Origin: Vulcanisaeta thermophila
GTDB taxonomy: Archaea > Thermoproteota > Thermoprotei > Thermoproteales > Thermocladiaceae
Reading direction: 5' to 3'
Assembly (NCBI RefSeq): GCF_001748385.1
Contig: NZ_BCLI01000004.1
Coordinates: forward strand, 186,001 to 250,000
DNA length: 64,000 nt
A program made the position numbers and the translations under genes. The notes beneath the pieces were generated by a model that worked only from the letters and a program-made list of their open reading frames with translations, ran no database searches and had not been told where the DNA came from. This document shows positions 42,292-48,130 of the stretch, piece by piece (position 1 is the first letter of the stretch; every line of letters starts with the position of its first letter).

Positions 42292-43749
42292 ATGCCCGGT
42301 GACCCACTAAAACGGTAAATAGGTTAAATAGGCTGGTACTACTCAGTAGACTGGCGCCACTGGCCCTGGTAATGTCCGTACTGGCTGTAACCGCCGTGAG
42401 GGCCCAGGCACCCGATCTATCTGGTTACCCAAGTACCGCCGTACCCGAGTGGCTCAGCCCCGGTAGTAATGCCTAGATGTTCACAGCTGCCACGCTCGTG
42501 GGCCTGCAAAGTGTTCCTGGTTTGATGCTGCTTTACGGTGGAATGACTAAGCGTAAGTACGCCATTAACACAATGATGATGGTGCTCTACGCCTTCGCCA
42601 TAGTACTGGTGATATGGGTTTTGGCTGGTTATGAATTTGCCTTTGGACCTGCCTCACTGAGGCTTGGCCCATACTACGTACTGGGTACCCCAATACCCGC
42701 ATTGACCAGTGGTGCCTTGGCAACCCAGGCCTCTGTCCCTGCCGCTCAGCAGTATCCCAACATCCCAATGTCAACACTCATATTCTTCCAGTTCGTATTC
42801 GCGGCAATCACGCCGGTCCTAATCGTGGGCGCCCTTATAGAGAGGATGAATTTCAAGGCCTGGATGCTCTTCGTTCCGCTATGGAGCCTATTGGTCTACA
42901 GCTCTATAGCCTTCTGGCTCTGGGGTGGTGGTTGGTTAATGCAGATGGGTGTTGTGGACTTCAGTGGTGGTTATGTGATACACGTGGATGCTGGCATAGC
43001 AGCCTTCGTGGCAGCGGCGCTGGTTGGTCCCAGGTTGGTTGAGGAGAGGAAGCTCCAACCGCATAACCTGACCCAGGTGGCTGCGGGCCTTGGTTTGGTA
43101 TGGTTGGGTTGGAATGGCTTTAATGGTGGTGACCCATACGGCTCAACCATAGATGCGGCGATTGCCGTGATAAACACTAACGTTGCCACCGCAGTGGCCG
43201 TGATCACGTGGGTTGGTTGGTATAACACCGGCGGCAGGTTACGTTAATGGGGTCGGGGCCATAGTAATAGGCGCGGTCTCAAGCGCCGCTGCCTGGTACT
43301 CACTGAACATGTTCCAGTTCAAGTCCAAACTAACGAGGAACATAGACGATGCGCTGGGCGTATTTTCAGACCACGCCGTACCCGGCATAGTAGGCGGCAT
43401 CCTCACGGGCATCTTTGCGGACCCATCAATAACTAAGTACGTGGACCCGGGACTGAGGGGCCTACTCTACGGAAACCCATACCAAGTGCTCCTGCAGTTG
43501 ATTGGCGTTGCCGTGGTCATTGCCTACGATGCAGTGATGACGTACCTAATCCTCAAGTTAATAAGCAAAATAACACTACTAAGGGCTGCAAGAGAGGCAT
43601 TGTTAGTAGGGGATAGGGAGCTCCACGGTGAGGAAGCATACGATGAATTCGCATTCCCAACACAAAGCAGTGTGGTTCAAATAATTGATAGGAGAGTAAA
43701 CGGTAATAAGGAGCCCGAGGACCCACCAACCAGGGTCAATAATGGCTAG
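42292..43749 (+). pseudogene. Ammonium transporter (Amt family), inactivated by a nonsense codon and a frame-shifting deletion
   Basis: The protein reads as Amt in pieces: signal-like VMSVLAVTAVRAQAPD, SPGSNA then TAG at 42474, then [20 protein letters not shown], then [25 protein letters not shown]-like [31 protein letters not shown] and [14 protein letters not shown]. In other Amt proteins the codon at the TAG is Trp in the conserved TAWML-like block. After ITWV (near 43211) about 23-25 residues found in all Amt are missing and the frame changes to [20 protein letters not shown], which runs on to a normal C-terminus at 43749. The start is also doubtful: an ATG at 42292 fits the promoter but soon runs out of frame. 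No GlnB gene is adjacent. Confidence 0.9.
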
Positions 43750-43843: not shown

Positions 43844-44947
43844 CTACATTGTCTGTCTCAGTATGAGTATTCCCCTCGCGTCCTTGACCCTGGTGGCTAG
43901 TGTTTCCCATAGTGTGAATGAGTGGATTCCATTCTCGGGCCCTATGTACGTTAATGCCGTATCAACCCCCAGGGCTATGTCCATAACCGAGTAATGCGTT
44001 GAAGCCAGTATTGCCGTGTCATCCCTTAACTGTGGTATTATTACCACATCCTTAACCAGGGATTTTACCCTCGTTAACTCCATAACCCCTGTCCTCTCCA
44101 CAACGGTTAGGAGCTTGGCATACCTACCTGGACTTACGAATAATACGTACGGCTCGGGTACGTAATCCCTATACAGTGTGTTTACTGCGTTAGAAACCTC
44201 ATTAACAGCTGACCCTGGGACCTCCCACGCCGTTATACTTAGGGTTCTCACTTTGGGGTTTGAGAGTATATCATTGAGTATTGTGGAGTCCTCCTCATAG
44301 GCAAGTTTAATGGCTGCGTGATCAGCGGTTATGGAGTAAACCCTCTCACCGCGAGCCCTGGCATACTCTACATGCCTTTGTGAGATTGAAAATTTAAAGC
44401 TCAACTCCTTAAGGGGTATCACAGACCTCGATGCGGTTATTGGCGGACCTGGTGAAACCTCCTCTAGGGGTACGGCATCAAGCCCAGGCCCTGCCTGGTA
44501 CGTAGTTATGTACTTCCTAAACCTCCTAACACCATCGGCGATCTCCCTAACCCTGGACTCTATGTATCGAAGCTCATCCTCACTGAGGTTTGATGATTTA
44601 ACTACATCCAATGGTGGATCCTGCACATTACCGACCTGGTTTGGGTCACTGGCATGGATGCCCGTTAACTCCTTAACCTCTGATGCACCGGCGCTAAGTT
44701 GCTCGGTTTGTTCCTTATCATAGGCCTTGAGTAGTGTGAGGAACTCACCGAAGTGGGTCTTCTCCTCCTTGGCAATGTCCTCAAAAACCCTACTAACCCT
44801 CTCATCCTTAATGAGCCTTGATAATTGCAGGTATAGGTTTATGGCATCCAGTTCAGCCATAATGGCCAGCCTGAGGGCATCGGAAATCTCCGCCTCAGAA
44901 AATGCCTTCTCGCGGGTTAGCTCAGCTGGGTTTTTAGAAAATACCAT
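43844..44947 (-). CDS. Encapsulin shell protein fused to a ferritin-like domain
   Basis: About 367 aa in two parts. Residues about 20-90 are an iron-oxidising ferritin-like domain with Glu32 (MAELDA), Glu62 and His65 (EEKTHFGEF) as the diiron ligands. After a linker, the part from about 135 has the HK97-fold encapsulin motifs RKYITTYQAGPGLDAVPLEE, VERTGVMELTRVKS and YTLWE-like ISHSFTLWETLATRV. Pyrococcus furiosus has the same fusion, whose shell stores iron inside. The ATG at 44947 is 26 bp after ACTTAAATATATT. The peroxiredoxin gene is immediately upstream on the same strand. Confidence 0.92.
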   Translation of the reverse strand: MVFSKNPAELTREKAFSEAEISDALRLAIMAELDAINLYLQLSRLIKDERVSRVFEDIAKEEKTHFGEFLTLLKAYDKEQTEQLSAGASEVKELTGIHASDPNQVGNVQDPPLDVVKSSNLSEDELRYIESRVREIADGVRRFRKYITTYQAGPGLDAVPLEEVSPGPPITASRSVIPLKELSFKFSISQRHVEYARARGERVYSITADHAAIKLAYEEDSTILNDILSNPKVRTLSITAWEVPGSAVNEVSNAVNTLYRDYVPEPYVLFVSPGRYAKLLTVVERTGVMELTRVKSLVKDVVIIPQLRDDTAILASTHYSVMDIALGVDTALTYIGPENGIHSFTLWETLATRVKDARGILILRQTM

Positions 44948-45062
44948 AACAAGAATCACTGCCTAAGCAAATATATTTAAGTATTACCACCGTTGCAACT
45001 TTATAATTTTAATGGAGAGGTATGGGTGGTTTTTTGACTTATGTATTACTATTGGTGACGCC

Positions 45063-45755
45063 TTACTCTATCCTTATTTTTATTATTTTCTTGGTCTCCT
45101 CAACCTCCTCCTTGGGTAACTCCCTGTACGTTAACCACCAGGCGAAGCCCTTATACTGCTGTAACCTCTTGGGTGCCTCCTCAACGTTGTGTGGTGGTGG
45201 GTTTAGCACGTTTTCGCCGATTATCTCGTTGTATGGCCAGTTGGCTGGCATCACCACACCGTACTTATCAATGAGTTGTAGTGACCTCACTATCCTCAGT
45301 ATCTCGGGTATGTTCCTACCCAGCTCCAGTGGGTAGTACAGTATCGTCCTTATCACAGCCTTGTCATCAACAATGAACACGGTCCTCACGGTATTCGTGC
45401 TTGACTCTGCGTGGAGCATTCCGAGGGCCCTTGATACGTTACCCAGTGGGTCTGCTATTATGGGGAAGGGTATCTTGACCTTCAGGGTGTTCTCAATCCA
45501 CTGAACCCACTCGATATGGCTTATGTCGGTGTCCACGCTGAGCCCTATTAACTCCGTATTCAATCTCTTGAAGTCCTCGTAATGCTTTGCGAAGCTCACA
45601 AACTCCGTGGTACACACAGGTGTGAAGTCCCCTGGGTGGCTAAACAGGACGAACCACTTGCCCCTGAAGGCATCTGGCAATTTCATTGGCCCATGTGTGG
45701 TCATCACGTTTAGTTCTGGGAACTTCTCCCCTATTGATGGTATTGTTATGGGCAT
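45063..45755 (-). CDS. Peroxiredoxin, 1-Cys/Prx6-like
   Basis: 230 aa. [23 protein letters not shown] contains the peroxidatic Cys, and [18 protein letters not shown] the following block; [16 protein letters not shown] is typical of archaeal Prx6-like enzymes. They reduce peroxides with thioredoxin-like donors. The promoter (ATTTAAAGG, centre near 45790) is followed by a palindrome over the expected start point. The encapsulin-ferritin gene lies downstream on the same strand, so both may serve iron and peroxide handling. Confidence 0.92.
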
Positions 45756-45772: not shown

Positions 45773-45940
45773 ATTGTCCAGGTGTTATTTAAAGGGTACT
45801 TGGTACTTGTAGTATTTTTCACTTAAAAATAATGTTTAAAAACATATGATGAAATATTCATATCTATTTATTTTTATTTAAATTCGCATGTCAAGCTCAT
45901 TACTTAGCAAGGTTTAAAAGTTGCCGTGTTAGTGCCTTGC

Positions 45941-46729
45941 GTGGATGATGTGGGCTTTACGTTGATTTTGCTGTATCTATTCCTTGCACTTGCCGTAGTG
46001 ATGCCTCTCTACGCCATACCCCTGGGTGTAGTTCTCTCTTACGAGCGATCCCTGGGTATCTCCGTGGTGCCCATTTACTACGTCTATGGCTTTACAGCCT
46101 TGATTGCAGCGTTGTTAGTGATGGGGTTCATCCTTTATAGGTATAGGTACCCCATTCTGAAGCCGCTTATTAGGTATGCCATGATGCCCTGTCCCGGGCG
46201 TGGGTTAGCACTGCTTTTTAGCTGTGGTGGTTTTGCCGCGCTCACTCTAGTGTTGTTGGTGCTCCTGGTTATTGTTTACCTAATCAACACGGGTGTCCTG
46301 GCGATACCCGGTTATAATTACATACCCGGCATAACCAGGTTTACGGGGCTTAGGGGGCTTGATGCATTATCATGGGTCCTGGGCCTCGTTAACTCTGTGC
46401 TGAGCGCCCTCGTGGTTGTGGGCGTGGTTTATCATAGGTTTAAGTCCCTGGGTAATAATTTAGCGTCCAGGTTAGGTGGAGCCTTCAGTGGCGTGTTGGG
46501 TGTGGCTACGTCACTGGGTTCCGCAGTAACCGCGGCCACGGCATGCTCTGTGGGTGCGTGCACCATATCCGCCAGCGGCTTGTCGCCGTTGATGGTTGTC
46601 ATAACCTACGTAGTGGGGTTTGCGGGGTCTGTGGACATTACCAGGTATGCGCTCGTGCTTGAATTGGCATTGCTAGTTGCGTTGGGCGTTGTTGCTTATT
46701 ACCTTCATAGGGGCCTTAGTGGGTGGTGA
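45941..46729 (+). CDS. Multi-pass membrane protein of unknown function
   Basis: About 262 aa, seven hydrophobic segments; no motif I know. There are pairs of Cys in or next to membrane segments (MMPCPGRGLALLFSCGG and TAATACSVGACTISA) that could bind a metal or form disulfides. A GTG at 45941 lies 26 bp after GGTTTAAAAG, better than GTG at 45926. TatA follows after 56 bp. Confidence 0.6.
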   Translation: MDDVGFTLILLYLFLALAVVMPLYAIPLGVVLSYERSLGISVVPIYYVYGFTALIAALLVMGFILYRYRYPILKPLIRYAMMPCPGRGLALLFSCGGFAALTLVLLVLLVIVYLINTGVLAIPGYNYIPGITRFTGLRGLDALSWVLGLVNSVLSALVVVGVVYHRFKSLGNNLASRLGGAFSGVLGVATSLGSAVTAATACSVGACTISASGLSPLMVVITYVVGFAGSVDITRYALVLELALLVALGVVAYYLHRGLSGW

Positions 46730-46785: not shown

Positions 46786-47184
46786 ATGGCAGTATTATTG
46801 TTTTTAGATACGCAAATGCTGATCCTAATCATAATAGCGTTTATAATACTCATAATATGGGGACCGAGTAAAATACCCCAGTTGGCCAGGAGCTTTGGCC
46901 AGGCGGTTAGGGAGTTTAGGCGCGGCGCCAGCGAGAGCGAGCCCGAGCCTGAGCTTGTGGAGATCGCTAAGAAATTGGGCATTGACCCCAGTGGGAAGAG
47001 TAGGGATGAGTTGCTGACTGAGATTAGTAGTAAGTTGCAGCAACAACCCGCGAAGGTTAAGGCTGAGGGTGTTAAGGTAGATCCCAGGGTTTTGGAGATG
47101 GCTGAGAAGTTGGGTATAGATACTAAGGGTAAGAGTGAGGAGGAGTTGATAAAGGAGATTAATTGGAAGTTGAGTAATAAGTAA
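46786..47184 (+). CDS. tatA: TatA-type twin-arginine translocase subunit with two added SAP-like repeats
   Basis: About 132 aa. One N-terminal membrane helix (MLILIIIAFIILIIWGPSKIPQLARSFGQAVREFRRG) with the GPSKIP hinge and amphipathic helix is the complete TatA. The added part, residues about 57-130, consists of two near-identical units: ELVEIAKKLGIDPSGKSRDE and RVLEMAEKLGIDTKGKSEEE, each ending L-x-E-I-x-x-K-L, 45 residues apart. The units look like SAP or Rho-N helix-extended-loop-helix motifs, which usually bind nucleic acid or protein. The ATG at 46786 is preceded by GCTTTTTAAG. TatC is convergent, 49 bp away. Confidence 0.88.
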   Translation: MAVLLFLDTQMLILIIIAFIILIIWGPSKIPQLARSFGQAVREFRRGASESEPEPELVEIAKKLGIDPSGKSRDELLTEISSKLQQQPAKVKAEGVKVDPRVLEMAEKLGIDTKGKSEEELIKEINWKLSNK

Positions 47185-47233: not shown

Positions 47234-48130
47234 TTAGGTTTGCCTTAACGGGGAAACCCTGTAAATACGCCTGGACCATGCATACCCAGCCTCGTAGAGC
47301 GCTATGAACATTAGGAACCAGAGCAACGTGCTTATTAATGTGGGGTCTGGGTTTACAATGGCTATGAAGACCAGGGCTCCGAAGTATATGTAGGGTCTGT
47401 TTCTTGATAGTGTGTCCGGCGTTATTAAACCTGCCTGTGTTAGTAATGCTATTATCACGGGTGTTTCGAATAGGAAACCCGCGAAGAATAGTGTTGATAT
47501 GAAGGTGTCCAGGAAACCACCTGTGGTTAGTAGGTGCACGAAGCCAAAGAGGCAGCTCCAGAATAGGCTTATTCTCAGGAAGGCGGGGAATACTAGGTAG
47601 TAACCCACGAAGACGCCTATGTAGAATAGCACCAGGGCTACCCATAGATACCTCCTAACAGCCCTCAACTCATGCGGGTACAGTGCTGGTTTTACGTATT
47701 GATAGACCTCGTAGACCAGGTAGGGTATTATGGCCAGCAGGGCCAGGACCATTGATAACTCCACTGAGAATACGAAGGGCCCCAGGACCGTGGTTGATAT
47801 TATGCCTATGGGTGCCGTGGAGTTCACATCAACACCACTTGGTGAAATTACTATGAACCTGGCGGCACAGGACACGGATTTAGCCGGCGCCACCACCATG
47901 TCGTATATATAGTGCTGGTACACATAGGCTATTATCGGGTTATACTCCATTGTGAAGAAGCCCACGACCATGGATTCCACGTTACCGTGAATACTGGGCA
48001 TTGGGAGCCACAGTGCCATGAAGACCACGGCGAATGCGATTAGGACCCCCCTTAACCTAACCCCAAGCTCCCTAATGTGCTCCCAAATGGGCATTTCCCT
48101 ATCGTATGGGGGCCTCTCCTCACTGGACAT
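47234..48130 (-). CDS. tatC: Twin-arginine translocase subunit TatC
   Basis: 298 aa, six hydrophobic segments. DREMPIWEHIRELGVRLRGV is the conserved cytoplasmic N-terminus that binds the RR signal, and FYIGVFVGYYLVFPAFLRI the Phe/Pro block. The first extracytoplasmic loop is enlarged (about residues 55-115, with VSCAARFIVISPSG). It recognises the Tat signal of exported proteins such as the molybdoenzyme at 34350. No TATA-like element could be fixed with confidence; the start ATG is near 48130. Confidence 0.9.
   Translation of the reverse strand: MSSEERPPYDREMPIWEHIRELGVRLRGVLIAFAVVFMALWLPMPSIHGNVESMVVGFFTMEYNPIIAYVYQHYIYDMVVAPAKSVSCAARFIVISPSGVDVNSTAPIGIISTTVLGPFVFSVELSMVLALLAIIPYLVYEVYQYVKPALYPHELRAVRRYLWVALVLFYIGVFVGYYLVFPAFLRISLFWSCLFGFVHLLTTGGFLDTFISTLFFAGFLFETPVIIALLTQAGLITPDTLSRNRPYIYFGALVFIAIVNPDPTLISTLLWFLMFIALYEAGYAWSRRIYRVSPLRQT

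What the first reader, a model, noticed from the sequence alone, without database searches (positions are those of the whole stretch)
46786..47184. TatA carrying two SAP/Rho-N-like repeats
After a normal TatA part two near-identical units of about 29 residues follow (LGID...GKS...EL...EI..KL), 45 residues apart. Such units often bind nucleic acid or proteins. An extension like this on a protein-export subunit suggests unknown regulation or pore tethering.
Basis: partly seen in the sequence, partly recalled or inferred. Interest (0 to 1): 0.55.

Follow-up and report, generated by a model that had tools for sequence, protein, structure and literature searches.

The report
TatA export protein with folded tail
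Many archaea of one large phylum carry a small two-helix module on the tail of TatA, a part of the machine that exports folded proteins, and the heat-loving genus Vulcanisaeta has doubled it; what the tail does is untested, but its conservation contrasts with the bacterial picture of a variable, dispensable TatA tail.

Summary
Window 46786-47184 encodes a 132-aa TatA (PF02416, E 1.4e-12) followed by two copies of a unit of about 33 residues, 45 apart. They share 17 of 33 residues, so 'near-identical' is too strong, but the similarity is far above chance (0 of 5000 shuffles). The unit is not special to this protein: of 51 TatA-like genes read in relatives, 33 have one copy and 7 have two, all 7 in the window's genus, Vulcanisaeta. 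Of 102 phylum genomes with a listed unit hit, 100 also have PF02416. The unit is predicted as helix-extended-helix (pLDDT 90.7), the layout of SAP and Rho_N domains, but it misses the Rho_N and SAP cut-offs. Both units are conserved within the genus while the linker is not. Some TatAs without the unit have coiled-coil-like tails, and the TatCs of those genomes form one clade. I read the unit as a protein-interaction module of the Tat machine rather than a nucleic-acid binder; this is inferred, not shown. Verdict: a genus-level duplication of a phylum-wide TatA tail module for which I found no description.

The parts
46786..47184 (+). tatA coding sequence, 132 aa (transmembrane helix about aa 2-25, amphipathic helix about aa 30-50)
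   Evidence: PF02416 E 1.4e-12; helices from an AF2 model with mean pLDDT 65.6, pTM 0.26
46945..47043 (+). tail unit 1 (aa 54-86), predicted helix-extended-helix
   Evidence: 44.5 bits with a profile of units from outside the genus; Rho_N 3e-5, under its cut-off
47044..47076 (+). linker between the units (aa 87-97), variable within the genus
   Evidence: mean aa identity 0.38 in the genus, against 0.83 and 0.90 for the units
47077..47178 (+). tail unit 2 (aa 98-131), predicted helix-extended-helix
   Evidence: 48.2 bits; AF2 of this unit alone, mean pLDDT 90.7
47234..48130 (-). tatC, convergent with tatA
   Evidence: PF00902 E 9.6e-41

Best explanation
The tail unit is a small folded protein-interaction module (helix-extended-helix) held on a flexible linker behind the amphipathic helix of TatA, on the cytoplasmic side. 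It most likely makes weak, reversible contacts within the Tat machinery (TatA with TatA, with its unit-bearing paralogue, or with TatC) and so helps to gather or release TatA protomers at the active translocation site. In Vulcanisaeta a duplication gave each TatA two such modules, that is, higher valency. Shown by computation: two units, their conservation, their location mostly on Tat subunits among the strongest hits in this phylum, the predicted fold, and tail type going with TatC type. Inferred: cytoplasmic placement (from known TatA topology) and every step about contacts and assembly.
For: Of the 150 strongest unit hits in 397 phylum genomes, 96 lie within 260 nt behind a listed TatA match on the same strand. 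42 of the other 54 fall in 40 regions that I read; those hold 44 unit ORFs, 40 with a TatA core, and of the 4 others one looks TatA-like by eye, two are fragments and one is a CO dehydrogenase. Of the 12 not covered, 7 were read elsewhere as TatA or its paralogue and 5 were not read. 100 of 102 genomes with listed units have PF02416. Within Vulcanisaeta mean identity is core 0.88, unit 1 0.83, linker 0.38, unit 2 0.90; mean dN is 0.117 and 0.073 for the units and 0.725 for the linker. Tails of the sister genera g2 and g4 show a heptad pattern, and coiled coils are association devices (general knowledge). In a tree of 99 TatCs all 17 rows labelled coiled-coil fall in one 18-row clade (SH-aLRT 97), although g2 and g4 belong to the window's own family. 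Weak structure matches include peripheral-subunit-binding domains, Z 2.2-3.2. A 2026 review says that C-terminal regions of recruited TatA can be readily cross-linked (PMC13186574, passages), and an NMR paper found that truncation of the E. coli tail promotes aggregation of TatA (PMC4121141, passages).
Against: No contact was observed or predicted; no multimer modelling was possible. The link between tail type and TatC type can be explained by replacement of the whole Tat system. The heptad pattern is not specific: 3 of 7 unit tails also contain it, inside the unit. The tail of TatA/B proteins is described as not conserved and dispensable (PMC13186574, passages). Of 20 regions with a TatA but no listed unit, 4 have short tails with neither unit nor coil (sorted by eye). 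The second TatA-like gene lacks the unit in 6 genomes of family f37. The best structure row for the unit is an axonemal protein, Z 3.7, with no evident relation.
Confidence: 0.4

Rival explanations
1. The units are SAP- or Rho_N-type nucleic-acid binders that tie the export machine to DNA, RNA or ribosomes.
For: Rho_N 3e-5 and SAP 0.011 for the window protein. In 81 genomes of the class, 16 of 17 Rho_N matches and 5 of 6 SAP matches at E<=0.01 coincide with TatA or its paralogue (places). Basic positions are constant: K20 in 26 of 26 units, K or R at 32 in 26 of 26.
Against: 1 of those 17 Rho_N matches reaches its cut-off and 0 of the 6 SAP matches do. Net charge of 26 units is -2 to +1; the window tail has pI 5.25. 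Most of the strong unit hits examined lie on Tat subunits and none was recognised as a DNA- or RNA-handling protein; 5 of the 150 were not read and weaker hits were mostly not examined.
Confidence: 0.1
2. The unit docks substrates, chaperones or another cytoplasmic partner and serves in targeting or quality control.
For: A predicted folded module at the end of TatA; peripheral-subunit-binding domains, a docking module, are among the weak structure matches.
Against: No partner gene is known; gene neighbours other than tat genes were not compared.
Confidence: 0.22
3. The unit is a stabilising cap or spacer without a partner, kept because a folded end resists proteolysis or heat.
For: Vulcanisaeta is thermophilic (general knowledge); TatA tails are described as dispensable.
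Against: Conserved polar positions K20, E28 and K/R32 go beyond what a bare cap needs (inference); weaker unit matches also occur in many genomes of phylum family f15.
Confidence: 0.18
4. The doubling is a neutral tandem duplication that adds nothing to the single unit (compatible with any role of the single unit).
For: Seen in one genus only: 7 of 7 canonical TatAs read from 6 Vulcanisaeta genomes, and no ORF with two units in the 60 further regions read.
Against: Both units are kept at 0.83 and 0.90 identity while the linker falls to 0.38.
Confidence: 0.25

Closest known systems
TatA (PF02416; TIGR01411 tatAE)
   Same: Transmembrane helix plus amphipathic helix, PF02416 E 1.4e-12, tatC next door
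   Different: Carries a conserved, predicted-folded C-terminal module, twice; TatA tails are described as not conserved and dispensable (PMC13186574, passages). TIGR01411 gives 51.1 bits against a cut-off of 53.9.
Rho_N (PF07498) and SAP (PF02037) domains
   Same: Helix-extended-helix layout (recalled for these families) and weak profile similarity
   Different: Below the curated cut-offs in the window; near neutral or acidic; on a membrane export subunit
Peripheral-subunit-binding (E3-binding) domain of 2-oxoacid dehydrogenase complexes
   Same: Small two-helix module; weak structure matches, Z 2.2-3.2
   Different: Not among the 7 Pfam families listed for this protein; partner unknown
Helical segment of Ni-CO dehydrogenase (about residues 118-173, by entry)
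   Same: Sequence profile match E 3.2e-6; model superposes at rmsd about 2.1, Z 2.0-2.7
   Different: There it is part of a large enzyme, not a tail

Membership tests
TatA/B/E (PF02416) | Profile match above the gathering score | tested here: met
   47.1 bits against 21
TatA/B/E (PF02416) | N-terminal transmembrane helix followed by an amphipathic helix | tested here: met
   Helices 2-25 and 30-50 in the AF2 model, modest confidence; membrane and amphipathic character judged by eye
TatA/B/E (PF02416) | TatC in the same genome | tested here: met
   Window 47234-48130, E 9.6e-41
TatA/B/E (PF02416) | Supports Tat-dependent export | not testable with these tools
   No assay
Rho_N (PF07498) | Profile match above the gathering score | tested here: not met
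   24.3 bits against 24.9 for the window TatA; 1 of 17 class matches reaches it
Rho_N (PF07498) | RNA binding | not testable with these tools
   No binding assay
SAP (PF02037) | Profile match above the gathering score | tested here: not met
   15.8 bits against 23.9; 0 of 6 class matches
Helix-extended-helix layout (SAP, LEM, Rho_N) | Two helices joined by an extended stretch | tested here: met
   Helices 4-13 and 22-35, mean pLDDT 90.7, pTM 0.58, four-row alignment; layout of those families recalled
Helix-extended-helix layout (SAP, LEM, Rho_N) | Structural match to a solved member | tested here: inconclusive
   No chain named SAP, LEM or Rho_N among the rows
Peripheral-subunit-binding domain | Structural match | tested here: inconclusive
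   Z 2.2-3.2

The most novel reading that the evidence does not exclude
Tat systems of one archaeal phylum use a folded, conserved helix-extended-helix tail on TatA (and often on its paralogue) as an assembly or docking module matched to their TatC type; systems with another TatC type use a coiled-coil tail for the same job, and Vulcanisaeta has doubled the valency of the module.
Probability: 0.3. Interest if true: 0.65.

Novelty: new variant of a known kind. Interest (0 to 1): 0.42.

Why it matters
How TatA protomers are gathered and released is still debated, and the TatA tail is described as not conserved and dispensable (PMC13186574, passages). A tail module kept across much of an archaeal phylum, absent where the TatC type differs in two sister genera, and doubled in one genus, gives a natural set of systems in which a role for the tail can be tested. 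It also misleads annotation: the TatA paralogue of this genome matches Pfam only as Rho_N at E<=0.01.

Tried and rejected
The whole-protein AF2 model has pTM 0.26 and its structure matches were given little weight; unit 2 was then modelled alone, with unit 1 and the two units of L032 as alignment rows. Foldseek with the unit gave no match at E<=0.001. The top PDB sequence hits, designed toroids, rest on 12-residue pieces and were set aside. Units 1 and 2 are about equally like the single units of 26 relatives (mean 13.7 and 14.5 of 33 identical), so which copy is the older was not settled. dS was undefined in 4 of 15 pairs for the core and 9 of 15 for the linker, so no dN/dS ratio is quoted. 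Seven literature searches showed no description of this tail in the titles and abstract starts listed; of those papers I read passages of three. Subscription journals and supplements were not searched, so prior description is not excluded. The unit was not sought outside this phylum.

A control against my reading: 7 genomes of family f29, three of them labelled coiled-coil in the TatC tree, also show a weak unit match (E 0.0016-0.0033). These were looked up: each is a partial match in an ORF of 170 or 617-620 aa, away from the TatA places, so they do not put a unit on those TatAs.

Rows dropped or not examined: 3 of the 54 TatA places were not fetched (weak second paralogues). L032 was left out of the counts because its contig has the same length as that of G006. 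One of the 51, L050, is probably a duplicate of L021 at a contig end. Lists stop at 150 rows each; weaker rows were not examined except, and 5 of the 54 unit hits without a listed TatA were not read. The 13 unit-less tails were picked by hand. Tail labels in the TatC tree were set by hand, one per genome; for G371, G385, G396, G127 and the second TatC copies of G371 and G382 (coiled-coil), and for G221 and G234 (degenerate), the tail itself was not read and the label follows the family; G020's TatA is truncated; G226 is labelled short although another place in that genome has a unit match. The tree is the quick method, and four rows have no label.

Full report
What is there. The ORF at 46786-47184 encodes a 132-residue TatA; residues 14-54 match TatA_B_E at E 1.4e-12, 47.1 bits against a cut-off of 21. 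It is the only PF02416 match at E<=0.001 in the 2.02-Mb genome. tatC lies convergently at 47234-48130. The one named relative found is a Vulcanisaeta MAG, 74% identical in the best segment. Behind the amphipathic helix come two units, residues 54-86 and 98-131, found at 44.5 and 48.2 bits by a profile built from units outside the genus. They share 17 of 33 residues; the two tail halves score 90, the best of 5000 shuffled pairs 55.

How common it is. Of 54 TatA-like places in 61 relatives, 51 were read. Seven have two units, all in the window's genus (6 of its 12 genomes have a TatA match); 33 have one; 11 have none by a simple pattern. Of those 11, seven end in a long tail without the unit, two have half a unit and two are truncated. 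In 397 genomes of the phylum a unit profile matches in 200 at E<=0.01 and PF02416 in 233. Of the 150 strongest unit hits, 96 lie directly behind a listed TatA match. Of the other 54, 42 fall in 40 regions that I read: they hold 44 ORFs with the unit at E<1e-5, 40 of them with a TatA core; of the remaining four one looks TatA-like by eye, two are fragments and one is a CO dehydrogenase. Seven of the 12 not covered were read elsewhere as TatA or its paralogue; five were not read. 100 of 102 genomes with listed units have PF02416; in the two exceptions the unit lies in a 53-aa ORF fragment and at a contig end. No ORF in the 60 regions has more than one unit. Of 20 regions with a TatA but no listed unit, 8 have a unit hit with my local profile; by eye 4 more have a degenerate form, 4 a coiled-coil-like tail and 4 a short tail. 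The single unit is therefore a widespread feature of TatA in this phylum, and the doubling was seen in one genus only.

A second Tat gene. The genome has a 122-aa paralogue on contig C7, 50% identical to the window TatA over 46 N-terminal residues, with one unit. Pfam finds Rho_N in it at 4.6e-4, below the cut-off, and no TatA match at E<=0.01. In five other Vulcanisaeta genomes it lies directly behind tatA.

Fold. Unit 2 alone is predicted with mean pLDDT 90.7 as helix 4-13, extended stretch, helix 22-35. In the whole protein the same pairs of helices appear at lower confidence. Profiles give Rho_N 3e-5, SAP_new25 2.9e-4 and SAP 0.011, all under their cut-offs. Of the 26 relatives' units scanned singly at E<=0.1, 15 match SAP_new25, 14 a homing-endonuclease family, 11 Rho_N and 5 SAP, so no one family stands out. 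In 81 genomes of the class, Rho_N has 17 matches at E<=0.01 (11 genomes, 1 match over the cut-off) and SAP has 6 (6 genomes, none over it); 16 of 17 and 5 of 6 lie on TatA or its paralogue. Structure comparison of the unit gives only weak rows: first an axonemal protein (Z 3.7), then peripheral-subunit-binding domains (Z 2.2-2.9; 3.2) and a CO dehydrogenase segment (Z 2.0-2.7, rmsd about 2.1). The CO dehydrogenase segment also matches by sequence, E 3.2e-6.

Constraint. Among six Vulcanisaeta TatAs (15 pairs), mean identity is 0.88 for the core, 0.83 for unit 1, 0.38 for the linker and 0.90 for unit 2, and mean dN 0.065, 0.117, 0.725 and 0.073. Across 26 single units A10, G14, G19, K20 and E28 are invariant, and K or R at position 32 is present in all. 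Net charge of those units is -2 to +1, mean -0.4; the window's units have -3 and 0.

Tail type and TatC type. Genera g2 and g4 of the window's own family lack the unit in the seven complete TatAs read, and five of their genomes searched with the unit profile gave no match. Of 13 hand-picked unit-less tails 11 show a heptad pattern and two short ones do not; 3 of 7 unit tails show the pattern too, inside the unit, so it is suggestive only. In a tree of 99 TatCs, the 17 rows labelled coiled-coil fall with one short-tailed row in one clade (SH-aLRT 97), where g2 and g4 join rows of families f22, f29 and f65 and stand apart from the window's genus; the label needs 2 changes against a shuffled mean of 16.0, none of 500 shuffles as low. 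Several labels rest on family and not on a tail that I read (see Tried and rejected). Weak unit matches in seven f29 genomes are not on TatA. The simplest reading is that the Tat system of g2 and g4 was replaced as a whole; this fits a tail matched to its TatC but does not prove contact.

Interpretation. The location mostly on Tat subunits among the strong hits, the exchange with coiled-coil-like tails and the conserved unit on a variable linker favour a protein-interaction module (0.40). Nucleic-acid binding (0.10) has only sub-threshold profile similarity and a few constant basic residues. Docking of another partner (0.22) and a passive cap (0.18) remain open. A review describes TatA/B tails as not conserved and dispensable (PMC13186574, passages), and an NMR paper describes the E. 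coli tail as largely unstructured (PMC4121141, passages). A third paper, which uses a Vulcanisaeta TatC as outgroup, says nothing of the tail in the passages found (PMC3827258). The unit is an exception to that description in sequence, though not yet in function.

Noticed in passing
window 42477-43749 (+): Two overlapping ORFs in different frames match successive parts of the ammonium transporter family (PF00909 positions 4-240 and 262-399), so the gene looks frameshifted or carries a sequence error.
   Followed up: partly
window 43844-44959 (-): A rubrerythrin/ferritin-like domain (aa 27-86) fused to an encapsulin shell domain (PF04454, E 1.4e-28), next to a peroxiredoxin gene at 45063-45755.
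   Followed up: partly
L054 1246-1611 (+), genome C7:18912-19277: TatA-like paralogue that Pfam matches only as Rho_N (E 4.6e-4), an annotation trap; directly behind tatA in five other Vulcanisaeta genomes but on another contig here.
   Followed up: partly
L177 (G019:C3:10572-10664): The unit profile matches a segment of a 614-aa ORF, CO dehydrogenase by eye, at E 1.7e-7, as it does PDB entries of that enzyme.
   Followed up: partly
G011:C1 2009797-2011844 and 2401575-2403217: One Vulcanisaeta genome holds two tat sets (tatA, paralogue, tatC) with tatC on different sides of tatA.
   Followed up: no
window 45926-46729 (+): A 267-aa protein, hydrophobic by eye, directly upstream of tatA with no Pfam family listed up to E 10.
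   Followed up: no
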